From the NCBI RefSeq assembly GCF_000023445.1, contig NC_012881.1:1617501-1681500 (forward strand): a DNA stretch of 64,000 nt, in the 5' to 3' direction. Each line of letters begins with the position of its first letter. The stretch's first letter is position 1. The position numbers and the translations under genes were made by a program. The notes beneath the pieces were generated by a model. That model saw nothing but the letters and a program-made list of their open reading frames with translations. It did no database searches and was not told the origin of the DNA. Shown here in pieces: positions 21,089 to 27,662 of this stretch. This DNA is from Maridesulfovibrio salexigens DSM 2638 (GTDB lineage Bacteria > Desulfobacterota > Desulfovibrionia > Desulfovibrionales > Desulfovibrionaceae).

Positions 21089-22624
21089 ATGCAAGAATTC
21101 GCTTATCCTGTTCTGACTGTCCTCGTGTTCTTTCCTTTGCTGGCGGCTGTCGGGCTTTTCTTCCTGAAAGGCGACAACACCATCAGGATGTACACATTGG
21201 GCGTGTCAATAATTGAACTCGCACTCTCATTTCCGCTCTTCGCCGGATTCAAGCTTGAGTCAGCAGCCTTCCAGTTTGTGGAACGCATGGACTGGGTTAA
21301 GCAATGGGGGGTAGAGTATTACCTCGGTACTGACGGCATCAGCTTTCTTATGGTGGTGCTGACCATCGCAGTACTGCCACTCTGCGTGCTTTGCTCTTGG
21401 ACTTACATCCAGACAAGGGTCAAGGAATTTCACTTCTGTCTGCTGTTTATGACCGCAGCCTGTGTGGGAGTCTTTACCGCTCTTGATCTGGTTCTTTTCT
21501 ATGTGTTCTGGGAAGCAATGCTGATTCCCATGTACCTGCTTATCGCCGTATGGGGCGGACCTGAGAAGCGTTACGCATCGCTCAAGTTCTTCCTTTATAC
21601 TTTGGCTGGATCGGCTCTGCTGCTGGTGGCTATCGTTGCCTTCAGAATAGCTGGCGGAACCTTTGCCATACCGGAACTTATGGAGCAGAATTTTGCCTTC
21701 AACTTCCAGTTCTGGGCATTTCTGGCTCTTGCTCTGGCCTTTGCCATCAAGGTCCCAATGTTCCCGTTCCACACATGGCTTCCTGCCGCACACGTACAGG
21801 CCCCCACAGCCGGGTCGGTAATTCTGGCTTCCGTGCTCCTGAAGATGGGAACCTACGGCTTTCTTCGCTTCAACCTGCCGCTTACTCCGGCAGCCAGTGA
21901 ATACTTTGCCCCGTTCATGATCGCCATATCCATTGCCGGAATTCTTTACGGCGGGATCGTGGCTCTCGGACAGAATGATATTAAAAAGGTTATCGCTTAC
22001 TCATCAGTTGGTCATATGGGGTTTGTCACTCTCGGCATCTTCCTTTTTAACCAGCGCGGATTGGAAGGTGCGCTCTTCCAGATGCTCAACCACGGTATTA
22101 CTACCGGCGGTCTGTTTATGATGATAGGGGCTGTCTATGAGCGCAGTCACAGCCGCGAACTTGATGACAACCTCGGACTTGGTAAATACATGCCCGCCTA
22201 CATGTTCTTCTGGGGGCTGTTCGCATTGTCGTCCTTTGGATTCCCCGGAACCAACAGCTTTGTAGGCGAAATTCTGGTCTTCGTCGGAGCATTTGAGCAG
22301 AATCCCTGGATCGGTGCTCTGATGGTGCCCGGAGCTATGGTTGCCGCGGCCTACATGCTGCGTGTTTCACTCAAGCTGGCTTGGGGACGTCCAACTTCGT
22401 GGAAGGAGTGGCCTGATCTTAACCTGCGTGAATGGACTTATCTGGTCATTCCGGCAGTGTTTGTCCTTTATATCGGCCTTGCACCGGGACTTTGCTTCAA
22501 GGTCATGGATGCCTCGCTGATCAAGCTGGAGAAGGATGTGAAGCAGGGAGCTAAGATTGTTGCCTTGGAAAAAGAACATCCTGCAGAAGTGGCCCTTAAT
22601 TCCCTGAAGGGAATCATTAAGTAA
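21089..22624 (+). CDS. nuoM: Complex I subunit NuoM
   Basis: A 511-residue antiporter-like subunit with about 14 helices. Channel residues: Glu in LFYVFWEAMLIPMY, Lys in FAIKVPMFPFHTWLP and Lys in LLKMGTYGFLRF. The family motif AHVQAPTAGSVILA is present. A GGGGAGAG site precedes the ATG. All features are typical. Confidence 0.96.
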   Translation: MQEFAYPVLTVLVFFPLLAAVGLFFLKGDNTIRMYTLGVSIIELALSFPLFAGFKLESAAFQFVERMDWVKQWGVEYYLGTDGISFLMVVLTIAVLPLCVLCSWTYIQTRVKEFHFCLLFMTAACVGVFTALDLVLFYVFWEAMLIPMYLLIAVWGGPEKRYASLKFFLYTLAGSALLLVAIVAFRIAGGTFAIPELMEQNFAFNFQFWAFLALALAFAIKVPMFPFHTWLPAAHVQAPTAGSVILASVLLKMGTYGFLRFNLPLTPAASEYFAPFMIAISIAGILYGGIVALGQNDIKKVIAYSSVGHMGFVTLGIFLFNQRGLEGALFQMLNHGITTGGLFMMIGAVYERSHSRELDDNLGLGKYMPAYMFFWGLFALSSFGFPGTNSFVGEILVFVGAFEQNPWIGALMVPGAMVAAAYMLRVSLKLAWGRPTSWKEWPDLNLREWTYLVIPAVFVLYIGLAPGLCFKVMDASLIKLEKDVKQGAKIVALEKEHPAEVALNSLKGIIK

Positions 22625-22642
22625 GCAACAGGAGATATTGAA

Positions 22643-24064
22643 ATGAATGTGAATCCATATCCTTTCATGCCGGAACTTTCCATGTTCCTGATCATCGCCC
22701 TGTTGTTCGTACAGGCGGTGGGCAGTGAACGTATGCGTCACAAGGTTGGAGTCTGGTTGCCCATTGCGTCTTTGCTGCCAATAGCTGTCTCGCTGTTTTC
22801 ACTCGGGCAGGAAGGCTTGTTCTTTCATGGGGCTTATCAGATCGATCCGCTTTCGCAGTTCTTCAAAGTTGCCATTGCGATTGGTTTCAGCGTGACCGTA
22901 TTCAACGCTACCCGTCAGCCGACTCTGCTGAATGATAAACGATCCGACTATTTCCTTTTCCTAGCCATAAGCGGTTGGGGATTGATGATGTTGGCTTCTT
23001 CGGTAGAGCTGATCACCATGTATCTTGCCTTGGAACTGTCATCCTACGCCCTCTATGCGATTATCGCTTTGCGCGCTAAGGATAAGGGAGCGGCGGAAGC
23101 GGCAATCAAGTACATTATGTTCGGTGCAGTTTCCACAGCTGTGGCTCTGTACGGATTTTCTTACATCCTTGCCGGAATGCACACCACTTACCTTGCAGAA
23201 TTGGTCCAGAAAACATGGTCCTTTGAGGCCGCACCGATGGCTGTAACAGGCATGGCTTTGTTTCTGCTGGGCATGTTTTACAAACTGGCTCTGTTTCCAT
23301 TCCACTTCTGGTGCCCGGATGTTTATGAAGGTGCCAGCAATGAAACTGCCGCTTTTGTGGCAACCCTGCCCAAGCTCGGCGCGGTGGTAATCCTGATTCG
23401 TCTCGCAGCGATGTTCAAGCCTGGATACGACATAACCACAGTGATTGCTGTACTTGGCGCACTATCCATGACTTTCGGTAACCTTGCCGCACTGGTCCAG
23501 CGAGATGTAAAGCGTATCCTCGGTTACTCATCCGTAGCCCATGCGGGTTACATCATGATCGGCCTTATTTCCGGTACTGCGGAAGGGCTTGCAGCTGCAT
23601 CATTCTATGCACTTGCTTACGTTGCCATGAACCTGACCTGCTTCTGGGTTGTCAGCCGCGTGTCCGTGGATGGCCGTAATCTGCAACTGGATGATCTTAA
23701 CGGGCTGCATAAGCGCGCCCCGGCCCTCGCTTTTGCTTTGGCTGTAGGAGCTTTCGCGCTGGTCGGTCTGCCGCCCATGGCCGGATTCATGGGTAAGCTT
23801 TTCCTGTTCTCTTCCGGCTGGAACCACGGCTACAACTGGCTGATCATCATCGCCGGGATCAACACCGCCATTTCCATCTACTATTATCTGGGAATGGTTC
23901 GTCATGCCTACACCAAGGATGCAGCTGAAGATACTCCGTTACCGGATACTTCCGCATTCAGCTATGCGGGTGCGGCTCTGCTTTCCCTGCTGGTACTCGG
24001 TTTGGGAATGATGCCTGCCGGAGTGTTTGATTTCGCTTTGAAGGTGGGGAGTGTGGTGCCGTAG
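22643..24064 (+). CDS. nuoN: Complex I subunit NuoN
   Basis: A 473-residue antiporter-like subunit, the last of the operon. Glu in MYLALELSSYALYA and Lys in FYKLALFPFHFWCPDVYEGA are the expected channel residues. The 3' end of this gene (from 23963) is repeated at 25347, 1384 bases downstream, with only synonymous differences. The C-terminus (FDFALKVGSVVP) is therefore identical in both copies. This suggests that a small element inserted here and supplied, or displaced, one gene end without changing the protein. Confidence 0.96.
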   Translation: MNVNPYPFMPELSMFLIIALLFVQAVGSERMRHKVGVWLPIASLLPIAVSLFSLGQEGLFFHGAYQIDPLSQFFKVAIAIGFSVTVFNATRQPTLLNDKRSDYFLFLAISGWGLMMLASSVELITMYLALELSSYALYAIIALRAKDKGAAEAAIKYIMFGAVSTAVALYGFSYILAGMHTTYLAELVQKTWSFEAAPMAVTGMALFLLGMFYKLALFPFHFWCPDVYEGASNETAAFVATLPKLGAVVILIRLAAMFKPGYDITTVIAVLGALSMTFGNLAALVQRDVKRILGYSSVAHAGYIMIGLISGTAEGLAAASFYALAYVAMNLTCFWVVSRVSVDGRNLQLDDLNGLHKRAPALAFALAVGAFALVGLPPMAGFMGKLFLFSSGWNHGYNWLIIIAGINTAISIYYYLGMVRHAYTKDAAEDTPLPDTSAFSYAGAALLSLLVLGLGMMPAGVFDFALKVGSVVP

Positions 24065-24099
24065 GGCGGTTGAAAAATAATCATGAAATTGAAAGCCCC
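23963..24099 (+). repeat. Direct repeat copy 1: functional nuoN 3' end
   Basis: It covers the last 33 codons of nuoN, the stop and about 35 bases beyond, to the foot of the terminator. It aligns without gaps to 25347-25478 over 132 bases with about 10 mismatches. Upstream of 23963 the similarity ends abruptly. Confidence 0.92.
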
Positions 24100-24128
24100 G
24101 TCTGAATTTTCAGGCGGGGTTACTTTTA
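24095..24128 (+). terminator. Terminator after nuoN
   Basis: GCCCCG-T-CTGAA and TTCAG-GCGGGGT form a hairpin followed by TACTTTTATTT. It ends the nuo operon and lies just before the convergent orphan gene. Confidence 0.8.
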
Positions 24129-24129
24129 T

Positions 24130-25257
24130 TTATGTTTTTGAATTAAGACATTTAATAGTTTGAGCTATTAATTCTTTAAATTCTGTTGTTGTTTTTGTTT
24201 TGTCCGCTTCTCCAGTAATGACACCAATATCTAACAGGCTTTCGTATAAGAAAGAGCTCTGCATTGTATGGTCAGGGTAGTCTTCTTCAGTTATATTAAA
24301 TCTTTTGTTTGTTTTATTTTTTAAGTGTTCTTGTAATTTCTCTCTTTTGAAAGAGAATTCATGTAAGGCTGAGTCAGTAATAACATTTTTGGGATGTGTA
24401 ATATATTTATCTATTCTTTTTATTTCTTCTAATCCATGTTTTGTATATGCTGTATATATAAGCTTTAGTTTTGGTTGTTCCTCTAAATCACGCGTTGTGA
24501 TCCCCATTTTGTTCTTAAAAATTTTCTTTCTGTACCATTTTGTGTAGGATCTGTACATGTTAAATGGTATTGAGATTATAAAAGCGGCAATAAAAATTAG
24601 TCCAATACATGTTAAGAAGTATACGGGTATACGCGCGAGTGTTTCATTCCAATTGTCAGGAAACAAAATAGAAAATAAACTTTTGCTTGGTGGGTGTAAG
24701 TAGCTATTTATTACAGTTATTTCTGTGTTAGCAATGATTCCTAATGGAGTTATTTGTGGTTCTTTATCTTTTAGATAAATGACATTAAGAGTGATGATAA
24801 AGTCGTCACCGGTTTCAAATACCATGTTTTCAAAAGTTATTTTTGTTTTGTCGTATTGAGGTTTTATTGCTTCAAAATGTCTGCTTTGGGTTGCTCTTTG
24901 GATTTCTAAAGAATCAATAGCGAGCGAATCCTCAAAGTTTACTCCGAATTTTATTTTTGGATTGTAATAAGCAGGGAGAACATCCAGATCTCCTTTGTTG
25001 GTAACTTTTATTACATATTGTCTGATTGTTTTCTTGCTTTCGGCAATGTTTTCACCATTGTAGAAGATTTGCATTTTGGCATTCATCGATGCTTTTGCAG
25101 GTATTAATTCATTCTGACCTACTATATCAAAAACAATTTCTCCCTTAGGTTCATGGATAAAATCATAAATAGTAATGAAAGCTAGAACTAGAGATAATAT
25201 CCAACCTAGCAATTGAAAAAATGTATTTTTAAACAGTTTGTTAAAAAATGATTTCAT
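24130..25257 (-). CDS. Unknown AT-rich membrane protein inserted behind nuoN
   Basis: A 375-residue protein that I do not recognise. A hydrophobic helix lies at residues 13-32, followed by a predicted beta-rich extracytoplasmic domain (33-205), a second helix (210-232) and a 140-residue basic cytoplasmic tail. The gene is strikingly AT-rich: two 60-base lines counted by hand have 38% and 23% GC, against about half in nuo. No Shine-Dalgarno site precedes the ATG at 25257. It is the only gene between the two copies of the nuoN 3' end. Composition and context point to horizontal transfer; it may be cargo such as a stress or phage-defence membrane protein, but no known domain supports this. Confidence 0.8.
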   Translation of the reverse strand: MKSFFNKLFKNTFFQLLGWILSLVLAFITIYDFIHEPKGEIVFDIVGQNELIPAKASMNAKMQIFYNGENIAESKKTIRQYVIKVTNKGDLDVLPAYYNPKIKFGVNFEDSLAIDSLEIQRATQSRHFEAIKPQYDKTKITFENMVFETGDDFIITLNVIYLKDKEPQITPLGIIANTEITVINSYLHPPSKSLFSILFPDNWNETLARIPVYFLTCIGLIFIAAFIISIPFNMYRSYTKWYRKKIFKNKMGITTRDLEEQPKLKLIYTAYTKHGLEEIKRIDKYITHPKNVITDSALHEFSFKREKLQEHLKNKTNKRFNITEEDYPDHTMQSSFLYESLLDIGVITGEADKTKTTTEFKELIAQTIKCLNSKT

Positions 25258-25337
25258 TTTGATCTAATTGGTATGAGGTTTTGATTCGTAGGTTATACTA
25301 GTGTTGCTTACGCACTAATATAGGTGATTGTGTTTTT

Positions 25338-25448
25338 ATGCAACGTTATGCGGGTGCGGCTTTGCTTTCCCTGCTGGTACTCGGTTTGGGAATGATGCCT
25401 GCGGGCGTGTTTGATTTCGCTTTGAAGGTCGGTAGTGTGGTGCCGTAA
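25338..25448 (+). pseudogene. Displaced 3' fragment of nuoN
   Basis: From 25347 the sequence encodes the last 33 residues of NuoN (start YAGAALLSLLV, end KVGSVVP) and then a stop. A chance ATG CAA CGT in front keeps a 36-codon frame. Against the functional copy there are five base changes in the codons, all synonymous, and the stop is TAA rather than TAG. Such a pattern means the two ends diverged while both were under selection in full-length genes, not that this is a decaying tandem duplicate. Confidence 0.88.
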
Positions 25449-25483
25449 GGCAGTTGATAAATAATTATGAAATAGAAAAGCCC
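25347..25483 (+). repeat. Direct repeat copy 2: nuoN 3' end
   Basis: This is the partner of 23963-24099. The unit between equal points of the repeats is 1384 bases. Similarity begins sharply at TATGCGGG and ends at the terminator foot (GCCCC), after which the two terminators differ in sequence. It could be the attL/attR-like footprint of an integrated element. Confidence 0.92.
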
Positions 25484-25511
25484 CTCAGCCATATGGCTGA
25501 GGGGCTTTTGT
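25476..25511. terminator. Bidirectional terminator between the nuoN fragment and feoB
   Basis: AAAAGCCCCTCAGCC and GGCTGAGGGGCTTTT are perfect 15-base arms around ATAT. The A and T runs let it work in both directions. It probably served the ancestral nuoN and still serves feoB. Confidence 0.92.
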
Positions 25512-25532
25512 TGTTGGAGACTTTTGTTGAGA

Positions 25533-27662
25533 TTACAGATTCAAAGGCTGCAATCCATCCAGCTTATCTGATTCCTTGTTGCCCAGATATTTCAGAGTCG
25601 CGTAAATCCCAGCGAGGATGGCGATGGCGATTCCTGCGTAAACAGGATTCCTGCCTTCTGCTATCTGGTAGAACAGGGTTGCTACGGACCAGCCAAGAGC
25701 GGTGCAGTACATTGCCATAACACCGGAGTAGAAGCCGCCCATTTCCTGTCTGGTTGCCCCGATTACCGCAAGGCAGGGGAAGTACATGAGTACGAAGAGC
25801 AGGTATGCAAATGCAGAGTATACGGTGAAGTTCGCTGCGAGGTGCTTGTATACAGAAGCATCTGCGCCGATTTCTTCGGATACGGTTGCGCTGTCTTCGC
25901 TGATCAGCCCGATTCCGAGCAGGTCAACGGAAGTAACAACACCAACAAGACCGTCAACTACAGTTCCGAAAGCTTCGTTAACTGTTCCGCCGATATCAAG
26001 GCCGCCTTCTTCTTCACCTTCTTCAGCAGCAGGTTCCGCAGGCGCCGCAGCGTCATCAATAGATGCGTACAGGGAGTTAACAGTACCTACGATTGCTTCT
26101 TTGGCGAAGAGTCCGGTGAACAGAGCAACAGATGCAGGCCAGTTTTCTTCTTCAATGCCCATGGGCTTGAATACAGGAGAGATGGATTTCCCGGCAATGG
26201 AGAGTACGGAATTCTGGGAATCTTCGTTACCGAAAGTCAGTTTGCCGTTATCGATACCTACTGAGTTCAGCATGGAGAGAACGAATACAGCGGTTACTAC
26301 GATAACACCCGCACGTTTAACAAAACCCTTCATACGCAGCCATGCGCTTTTGAAAACTGCACTGATTCTGGGGATGTGGTAAAGGGGCAGGTCCATTACA
26401 AAGTGGGACGGAGATCCTTTAAAAAGTGTATTTTTCAGCAGGAATCCGGTGAAAATAGCCATTGCAAGACCTGAGAGATAGATCAGGAATACGGCCAGAC
26501 CGGAATATGCACCGAAGAGCGCCACGCAGAAGAGTGCATATACAGGCAGACGTGCACCGCAGGACATGAACGGAGCCATGAAAATGGTCATGAAGCGGTC
26601 ACGCTTGGAAGTCAGGGTTCTGGCAGACATAACCGCAGGAACGGTGCAGCCGAAGCCTACAACCATGGGAATGAATGCGGAACCGGGCAGTCCGATCTTG
26701 CGCATGAAGCGGTCAGCAACAACTGCAACGCGGGCCATGTAGCCGAAGTCTTCAAGGATCGCCAGCGCGAGGAACATGAAGAATACAACAGGGATAAAGG
26801 TCGCTACGGTCTGGATACCCGCGCCGATACCGCCAAGGGTAACAGTAACCCATTCCGGTGCGCCGATATTGCTCAGCAGGTCCGCAGGGATATCGATGAA
26901 AATGAGTCCGGCCATGATGTCAAAGAAGTCAATGAATACAGAGCCGAGACCGATTGCAAACCAGAAGGTCAGGAACATGGAAATAAGAAACACGGGAATA
27001 GCCGCGAACTTATTCATGACAATGTTATCGACCTTATTGGTGAAGTTCTGGCTGCGGTCTTTCTTCTCTTTGAGGACTTTGCTGTAAATGTTGTCGATGT
27101 GGTTGTACTTCTCAACCGTATCCATCACTTCCTGACGGGTGGGGTGAGAATCGTGTTCCGGGAGTTTTTGTGCTTCTACAGCAAGAGCAGCTACAGCTCT
27201 TTCAACAGAATCCTTATCAACGGCAATTACCGGGATAACAGCGATACCAAGCTCTTTGCTGAGTTTTCTTACATCAATATCAAGACCTTCGCTTTCTGCA
27301 ACATCAAGCATGTTCAGCAGGATAACTATCTGATCGGTGCGTTCCTTAAGGTCCATGGTCAGGAACAAGTTTCTGGAAAGATTTGTTGCATCCACAACGT
27401 TTACGATCATGTCGTATTCACCGCTGCGGATTACGCGCTCGGCAACTTTCTGGTCTTCGGTATCAGGGCTCAGGTTGTAGGTTCCGGGGAGGTCTACAAG
27501 CTCAACTTTGGTACCGGAAAGGGAAAAAGTTCCTTCGATTTTTTCTACTGTAACTCCGGGCCAGTTACCGACTTTCTGGCGTGCCCCTGTAAGAGCGTTG
27601 AAAAGTGTGGTTTTACCGCTGTTGGGTACGCCTGCAATGGCGATTCTTTCAATTCTATGCAT
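25533..27662 (-). CDS. feoB: Ferrous iron transporter FeoB
   Basis: A 709-residue inner-membrane Fe(II) transporter. The N-terminal G domain has GVPNSGKTTLFNALTG (G1), VGNWPGVTVE (switch I), LVDLPGTYNL (G3) and LLNMLDVA (G4), followed by a helical GDI-like linker. The membrane part carries the two Gate motifs (VVGFGCTVPAVMSARTL and ASVALFTGLFAKEAIVGT). An acidic, alanine-rich loop (about residues 545-565) is inserted before the last helices. feoA ends 2 bases upstream, so the two are co-transcribed. Confidence 0.97.
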   Translation of the reverse strand: MHRIERIAIAGVPNSGKTTLFNALTGARQKVGNWPGVTVEKIEGTFSLSGTKVELVDLPGTYNLSPDTEDQKVAERVIRSGEYDMIVNVVDATNLSRNLFLTMDLKERTDQIVILLNMLDVAESEGLDIDVRKLSKELGIAVIPVIAVDKDSVERAVAALAVEAQKLPEHDSHPTRQEVMDTVEKYNHIDNIYSKVLKEKKDRSQNFTNKVDNIVMNKFAAIPVFLISMFLTFWFAIGLGSVFIDFFDIMAGLIFIDIPADLLSNIGAPEWVTVTLGGIGAGIQTVATFIPVVFFMFLALAILEDFGYMARVAVVADRFMRKIGLPGSAFIPMVVGFGCTVPAVMSARTLTSKRDRFMTIFMAPFMSCGARLPVYALFCVALFGAYSGLAVFLIYLSGLAMAIFTGFLLKNTLFKGSPSHFVMDLPLYHIPRISAVFKSAWLRMKGFVKRAGVIVVTAVFVLSMLNSVGIDNGKLTFGNEDSQNSVLSIAGKSISPVFKPMGIEEENWPASVALFTGLFAKEAIVGTVNSLYASIDDAAAPAEPAAEEGEEEGGLDIGGTVNEAFGTVVDGLVGVVTSVDLLGIGLISEDSATVSEEIGADASVYKHLAANFTVYSAFAYLLFVLMYFPCLAVIGATRQEMGGFYSGVMAMYCTALGWSVATLFYQIAEGRNPVYAGIAIAILAGIYATLKYLGNKESDKLDGLQPLNL

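What the first reader, a model, noticed from the sequence alone, without database searches (positions are those of the whole stretch)
23963..25483. 1.38-kb insertion at the nuoN 3' end, bracketed by two synonymous copies of the gene end
The last 33 codons of nuoN, its stop and about 35 bases beyond occur twice, 1384 bases apart, with about 10 mismatches in 132 aligned bases and no gap. All five changes in the codons are synonymous and the stop is TAG in one and TAA in the other. Similarity begins abruptly at both left ends and stops at the terminator feet. Elements that integrate in the 3' ends of protein genes (for example at E. coli icd) leave just this: a replaced gene end plus a displaced original. 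Here no integrase is present and only one unknown gene lies inside, so this may be a minimal or decayed element, or gene capture by recombination.
Basis: partly seen in the sequence, partly recalled or inferred. Interest (0 to 1): 0.82.

Follow-up and report, generated by a model that had tools for sequence, protein, structure and literature searches.

The report
Foreign gene behind duplicated nuoN end
A single foreign, A+T-rich gene sits just behind a housekeeping gene of a Desulfovibrio-like bacterium, with a second copy of that gene's tail beyond it; this most likely records a recombination event with a close relative, a known kind of gene gain, rather than a phage-like element.

Summary
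Bases 23963-24102 and 25347-25486 are direct repeats 1384 bases apart: the last 33 codons of nuoN, the stop and about 35 bases beyond, with 10 mismatches in 132. All five codon changes are silent. Between them lies one intact gene (24130-25257, minus strand, 375 aa); the insert has 31% G+C, its neighbours 50-52%. No second nuoN end was found in 16 congeners or in 73 testable further loci. Seven of 12 congeners with nuoN facing feoB hold other genes there. The copies look like working gene ends of two close lineages (4 of 33 third positions differ; 39% or more against the nine congeners measured). So the insert probably arrived attached to a relative's nuoN end and displaced the resident one. 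Single crossover of a circularised fragment, or homology-facilitated illegitimate recombination, explains this without an integrase, and none lies nearby. Site-specific integration by a recombinase acting in trans is not excluded. The gene encodes a sparse two-helix membrane protein whose only library match is a phage family of unknown function; one relative is a lone A+T-rich gene behind fusA, another lies near CBASS-like genes. Kind: insertion with long target duplication. New member, modest interest.

The parts
22643..24064 (+). nuoN, complete (473 aa), ending in repeat copy A
   Evidence: ORF list; NuoN model E 1e-98; 94-97% aa identity to the six nearest congeners
23963..24102 (+). repeat copy A: last 33 codons of nuoN, TAG stop, 3' UTR, foot of hairpin; starts at codon 441
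24094..24121 (+). terminator-like hairpin of copy A (12 pairs, 7 G-C)
   Evidence: 4 such sites found in the stretch, 1.2 expected by chance
24122..25346 (.). foreign insert, 31% G+C, with one gene and 89 non-coding bases on its right
24130..25257 (-). cargo gene, 375 aa: two hydrophobic stretches (residues 11-35 and 205-236) around a domain of unknown function, then a tail; matches phrog_29747 (unknown function) at E 1.1e-13
   Evidence: no Pfam or NCBIfam match over cut-off, none in PADLOC
25347..25486 (+). repeat copy B: displaced nuoN end with TAA stop, in frame with an ATG at 25338 (36-codon reading frame)
25476..25509 (.). second hairpin, 17-base arms without mismatch, 23 bases from the feoB stop; called a terminator on the minus strand; probably (inference) the original nuoN/feoB terminator
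   Evidence: (I7)
25533..27662 (-). feoB (709 aa), the right-hand neighbour, convergent with nuoN
   Evidence: 80-93% aa identity beyond nuoN in 12 of 16 congeners

Best explanation
Gene capture by recombination with a close relative. A donor of the same or a sister species had the A+T-rich gene behind its own nuoN terminator. A fragment carrying the donor's nuoN end, terminator and gene entered the cell and recombined by homology with nuoN, so that nuoN now ends in one lineage's sequence (copy A). The fragment's other end had no homology. It was joined to nuoN codon 441, either because the fragment had closed into a circle before a single crossover, or by homology-facilitated illegitimate joining. 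This left the other lineage's nuoN end (copy B) beyond the new gene, beside its terminator and feoB. Shown: the repeat, silent-only divergence in codons, foreign composition, single ends in the relatives examined, a variable interval. Inferred: donor, polarity (A donor and B native is likelier because B adjoins the terminator next to feoB), crossover, and the nature of the joint.
For: (1) A second nuoN end in 0 of 17 loci from 16 congeners and one other genus and in 0 of 73 testable of 80 further loci. (2) A and B differ at 4 of 33 third positions (12%) plus one silent first position; the nuoN body differs from the nine congeners measured at 170 to 244 of 440 third positions (39-55%). A and B share Tyr441; 7 of those 9 have Phe. 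(3) All five codon differences are silent: chance 0.015-0.027 if one copy drifted freely since an in-place duplication, 0.0016-0.0033 if all changes fell in the free copy. (4) From the stop on, 6 of the first 34 bases differ, close to the silent rate, and the hairpin stems differ, as between orthologous loci. (5) The nuoN-feoB interval holds other ORFs in 7 of 12 congeners with that arrangement, so a donor with a gene there would be ordinary. (6) In E. coli, with linear DNA homologous at one end to the 3' end of lacZ, 56 of 60 clones of the rare Lac-minus class had a partial duplication of the gene end (109-950 bp in 14 sequenced), attributed to circularisation and single crossover (PMC3240628, passages); 140 bp lies in that range.
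Against: No donor genome and no empty site of the same species was found. HFIR was very rare in that E. coli system (about 3e-10 per recipient) and is expected to delete rather than duplicate. If the crossover lay inside the repeat, 140 bp at 91% identity is short for RecA; it may instead lie further up in nuoN. On a small tree (99 nt) all A/B changes fall on the B branch, which could also be read as drift of B. The silent-only argument rests on five changes.
Confidence: 0.62

Rival explanations
1. Site-specific integrative element: the core lies at the left edge of the repeat, the element carries a mimic of the nuoN end (copy A), and an integrase acted in trans or was lost, like the displaced icd ends left by integrative elements (recalled).
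For: The anatomy is what such integration leaves: intact restored gene, displaced end, foreign G+C. The genome has 11 tyrosine recombinases and one serine recombinase that could act in trans.
Against: No recombinase in the insert; among 97 nuoN loci (95 distinct) and the window, one hit, 4.1 kb behind nuoN beyond unrelated genes (tyrosine type only). The 15-base core is exact only at A and B; 12 further sites have two mismatches, one about 5.3 kb from a recombinase, judged chance. The right non-coding end has only short matches in the 98 other family genomes searched, best E 0.011 over 26 bases. No viral contig matched the nuoN-end pattern or peptide. Similarity goes on past the stop at about the silent rate, where a mimic has no reason to follow.
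Confidence: 0.2
2. In-place duplication: the cargo came first, and later the nuoN end was copied beyond it; copy B has drifted since.
For: A tree of 99 nt puts all changes on B. B keeps an open frame from an ATG at 25338.
Against: All five codon changes are silent (chance 0.0016-0.027); the two hairpins have different stems, and B's sits beside feoB. No mechanism for such a copy was seen.
Confidence: 0.1
3. Movement of the cargo gene as a unit of its own that prefers places behind terminators of housekeeping genes, with the nuoN end picked up in a previous host.
For: A relative of the cargo gene is a lone A+T-rich gene directly behind fusA in G329 (23-44% G+C per 100 bases against 56-75% around it), while 5 of 5 other genomes tested of that genus have only 145-358 bases there.
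Against: No gene-end repeat at the fusA site and no terminal repeats at the edges of the nuoN insert; only two such sites were seen; the relatives in G326 and G598 lie in other settings.
Confidence: 0.08

Closest known systems
Insertion with long target duplication (Nobusato et al. 2000, not read; known here from passages of PMC1643837, PMC3031569 and PMC3154945)
   Same: A gene without mobility functions of its own, bracketed by long direct repeats of chromosomal target sequence
   Different: Cargo does not match restriction-modification genes; the two repeats have diverged like two lineages; the empty-site strain is inferred, not seen
Single crossover of a re-circularised linear fragment, or homology-facilitated illegitimate recombination (PMC3240628 and PMC2884548, passages)
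   Same: Homology at one end in a gene 3' end, none at the other; in the first case a partial duplication of the gene end
   Different: A natural event of unknown age, donor unknown, no strain pair
Displacement of T6SS effector genes by effector-immunity modules in Vibrio cholerae (PMC5361080, passages)
   Same: Incoming module thought to be anchored on an upstream conserved region, with an old downstream part left beyond it
   Different: Here the anchor is a respiratory gene and the leftover is a gene end, not an immunity gene
Minimal mobile element of Neisseria (PMC2649163, passage; definition recalled)
   Same: Different genes between the same two conserved genes in different genomes
   Different: Compared here between species only; a duplicated gene end is not a defining part of it
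Integrative elements in 3' ends of protein genes such as E. coli icd (recalled)
   Same: Restored gene end plus displaced end
   Different: No integrase in the insert and no relative of the insert's right end found

Membership tests
Insertion with long target duplication | Insert flanked by long direct repeats of target DNA | tested here: met
   140 nt, 91%
[quoted passage not shown]
   17 of 17 loci of other genomes show no second nuoN end and no cargo gene, but 7 have other genes before feoB, and no same-species strain is held
Integrative element in a gene 3' end | Integrase gene in the element | tested here: not met
   One ORF of 100 aa or more inside; no recombinase match for it; none of the own tyrosine recombinases hits the window
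Integrative element in a gene 3' end | Gene kept whole by an equivalent end | tested here: met
   nuoN is open to its stop; the ends differ only silently
Integrative element in a gene 3' end | Same attachment site used in other genomes | tested here: not met
   No second nuoN end in 17 and 73 loci; one recombinase hit in 97 loci, 4.1 kb away
Integrative element in a gene 3' end | Excised circle | not testable with these tools
   needs DNA from cells
Minimal mobile element | Conserved flanking genes with different cargo in different genomes | tested here: met
   Of 12 congeners with nuoN facing feoB, 7 have ORFs of 60 aa or more between, 5 have none
Minimal mobile element | Exchange between strains by transformation through the flanks | not testable with these tools
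   no strain set; competence not examined
phrog_29747 (phage protein family, unknown function) | Profile match over much of the protein | tested here: met
   E 1.1e-13, residues 4-248 of 375, profile 4-247 of 364

The most novel reading that the evidence does not exclude
A one-gene mobile unit without a recombinase of its own: an A+T-rich membrane-protein gene, possibly linked to phage defence, that repeatedly lands behind the terminators of housekeeping genes (nuoN here, fusA in another genus) and in one case carried a captured gene end that served as its landing site.
Probability: 0.08. Interest if true: 0.65.

Novelty: new member of a known kind. Interest (0 to 1): 0.34.

Why it matters
Single foreign genes are common in bacterial genomes, but how they got in is usually invisible because both joints have vanished. 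Here one joint and a displaced gene end survive, with silent differences that suggest the two ends come from two lineages. If right, it is a readable record of integrase-free gene gain in a Desulfovibrio-like bacterium, and a concrete case for asking how often such gene-end duplications occur.

Tried and rejected
Close relatives of the cargo: none in phage and plasmid records (with a relative as query), none confirmed in genome contigs and viral contigs. The putative core elsewhere in the genome: exact only at A and B, 12 more sites with 2 mismatches. Other gene-end duplications in 569,669 bases (window, 17 nuoN loci, 10 stretches of the own genome around its tyrosine recombinases, two cargo-relative loci): other repeats were a pair of permease-like genes in the window (49529 and 50228, by reading the translations), dispersed intergenic repeats in L033, L035 and L039, a duplicated tRNA-Pro/tRNA-Thr segment in L094 and a short pair in L099. 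L112 had a repeat behind nuoN, but of post-stop sequence; L162 and L165 had 26-base matches. Rfam at gathering thresholds: no match in 22500-26500. No solved structure matched the cargo profile. Rejected: chance repeat (E 4e-50); a copy elsewhere in the genome (one search found the window place and its own hairpin only). Paper search (three terms together) found nothing; one search listed nine papers, none opened.

Full report
What is there. The window lies in a 4.29-Mb single-contig genome. A congener contig, 96% identical in NuoN, is recorded as Desulfovibrio sp. UBA2564. nuoN (22643-24064, +) faces feoB (25533-27662, -). Between them lie a terminator-like hairpin, a 375-aa gene on the minus strand, 89 non-coding bases, and a second copy of the nuoN end with its own hairpin. 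The copies, 23963-24102 and 25347-25486, are 91% identical without gaps, with 10 mismatches in the first 132 bases. The repeat starts exactly at codon 441. The insert has 31% G+C; nuoN has 52% and feoB 50%. G+C at third positions is 26% in the cargo gene and 59% in nuoN.

Empty and filled sites. I took nuoN and roughly 10-18 kb beyond it from 16 congeners and one other genus (G010 only to its contig end, about 2.5 kb beyond). None of the 17 shows a second nuoN end; the best self-matches are 12-33 bases at chance level. In 12 of 16 congeners feoB was found beyond nuoN, convergent, after 166 to 3675 bases. Seven of these intervals hold one to three ORFs of 60 aa or more; five hold none. By eye, one unknown gene is shared by G003, G004 and G008, and a sensor-kinase-like gene by G003 and G011 (HisKA and HATPase in G003's; a CHASE domain in G010's; no Pfam match for three others). 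In four congeners (G002, G005, G006, G016) feoB was not found in the stretch taken. The region further downstream also varies, so this is one variable place in a variable region, not a proven special hotspot. Of 80 further nuoN loci, 73 had enough sequence beyond nuoN, and none had a second coding end; two of the 80 are the same records as G010 and G007. The cargo gene was found in no congener; in the order, 3 of 348 genomes matched it, the own one included.

Where the two ends come from. A and B differ at 4 of 33 third positions and at one first position (Leu, silent). The nuoN body differs from the nine congeners measured at 170 to 244 of 440 third positions; the other seven were not measured position by position and are more distant in protein (77-80%). 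So A and B are far closer to each other than to these, but not identical. All five differences are silent. If one copy had been free of selection since an in-place duplication, that has a probability of 0.015-0.027, or 0.0016-0.0033 if all five fell in the free copy (three transition weights). From the stop on, divergence is about the silent rate (6 of 34), and the hairpin stems differ. Two orthologous loci of sister lineages would look like this. Against it: five changes are few, and a tree of 99 nt puts all of them on the B branch (support for A+B 0.78). B also keeps an open frame from an ATG nine bases upstream, which may be chance.

Mechanism. The simplest history is that a fragment with a relative's nuoN end, terminator and cargo gene recombined with the recipient. 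In an E. coli test with linear DNA homologous at one end to the 3' end of lacZ, 60 clones of a rare class were analysed. Fifty-six had a partial duplication of the gene end, 109-950 bp in 14 sequenced ones, which the authors explain by circularisation and single crossover; the other four were put down to homology-facilitated illegitimate recombination (PMC3240628, passages). A comparison of strains within species (PMC2884548, passages) and a study of Vibrio T6SS modules (PMC5361080, passages) propose homology-assisted illegitimate recombination for small variable segments and for leftovers beyond new modules. I favour this family of events at 0.62. B adjoining the perfect hairpin beside feoB makes B the likelier native end, but that is inference.

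Site-specific integration. The genome has 11 tyrosine recombinases and one serine recombinase, none inside the window by position, so action in trans is possible. But the insert has no recombinase; the core is exact only at A and B; the right end of the insert has only short, weak matches in the 98 other family genomes searched (44 of 99 genomes, the own one included, had something at E up to 1; best other 0.011); and the 11 recombinases as queries hit one of 97 nuoN loci (95 distinct), 4.1 kb behind nuoN beyond unrelated genes. I put this at 0.2.

The cargo. It has two hydrophobic stretches (11-35, 205-236), no Pfam or NCBIfam match over cut-off and none in PADLOC, and matches phrog_29747, a phage family of unknown function. 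That family was found in 4 of 348 genomes of the order at E up to 0.01, the own one included, and in 2 of 395 of a phylum sample, the own one included. In G329 a relative stands directly behind an elongation factor G gene as a lone A+T-rich gene; in 5 of 5 other genomes tested of that genus the same interval has only 145-358 bases. In G326 a relative found with the alignment (the only new genome there) lies 1.9 kb before genes matching E1-E2, JAB and SAVED-2TM models of CBASS; a cyclase gene was not looked for. In G598 a relative lies next to a gene with an NYN match under its cut-off and a HEC-09 match at E 1e-7. A defence role is a guess from context, and PADLOC has no model that matches the cargo itself. 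No structure could be predicted.

Known or new. The arrangement fits 'insertion with long target duplication', described from Helicobacter pylori (Nobusato et al. 2000, not read; passages of PMC1643837, PMC3031569 and PMC3154945). The variable interval resembles minimal mobile elements (PMC2649163, passage; definition recalled). In the held library, nuoN with 'integration site' and 'genomic island' gave no paper, and Desulfovibrio salexigens with 'genomic island' and 'integrase' none. I file it as a new member of a known kind.

Noticed in passing
L090 7748-8446 (G329), behind an elongation factor G gene: A relative of the cargo gene is a lone A+T-rich insert (23-44% G+C per 100 bases in a 56-75% setting); 5 of 5 other genomes tested of the genus have too little room for it there.
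   Followed up: partly
L185 3867-5006 and 6923-10313 (G326): Another relative lies 1.9 kb upstream of E1-E2, JAB and SAVED-2TM genes that match CBASS models.
   Followed up: partly
25338-25448: Copy B is in frame with an ATG three codons upstream, giving a 36-residue frame identical to the NuoN C-terminus after MQR; an AGGTG lies about ten bases before the ATG (by eye).
   Followed up: partly
L033 5166-5223 and 12445-12501; L035 10140-10247 and 14773-14879: Dispersed intergenic repeats in congeners sharing, by eye, a motif like GGGATTCTTAAACCCTTTT.
   Followed up: no
L094 12229-12642 and 12773-13186 (own genome 3528228-3529185): A direct repeat of about 415 bases, 97% identical, each copy with a tRNA-Pro and a tRNA-Thr gene, about 2.5 kb from a tyrosine recombinase.
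   Followed up: partly
L112 from 7428 (Telmatospirillum): The 40 bases behind nuoN's stop recur about 80 bases on (exactly) and again about 1.5 kb further on (85%).
   Followed up: no
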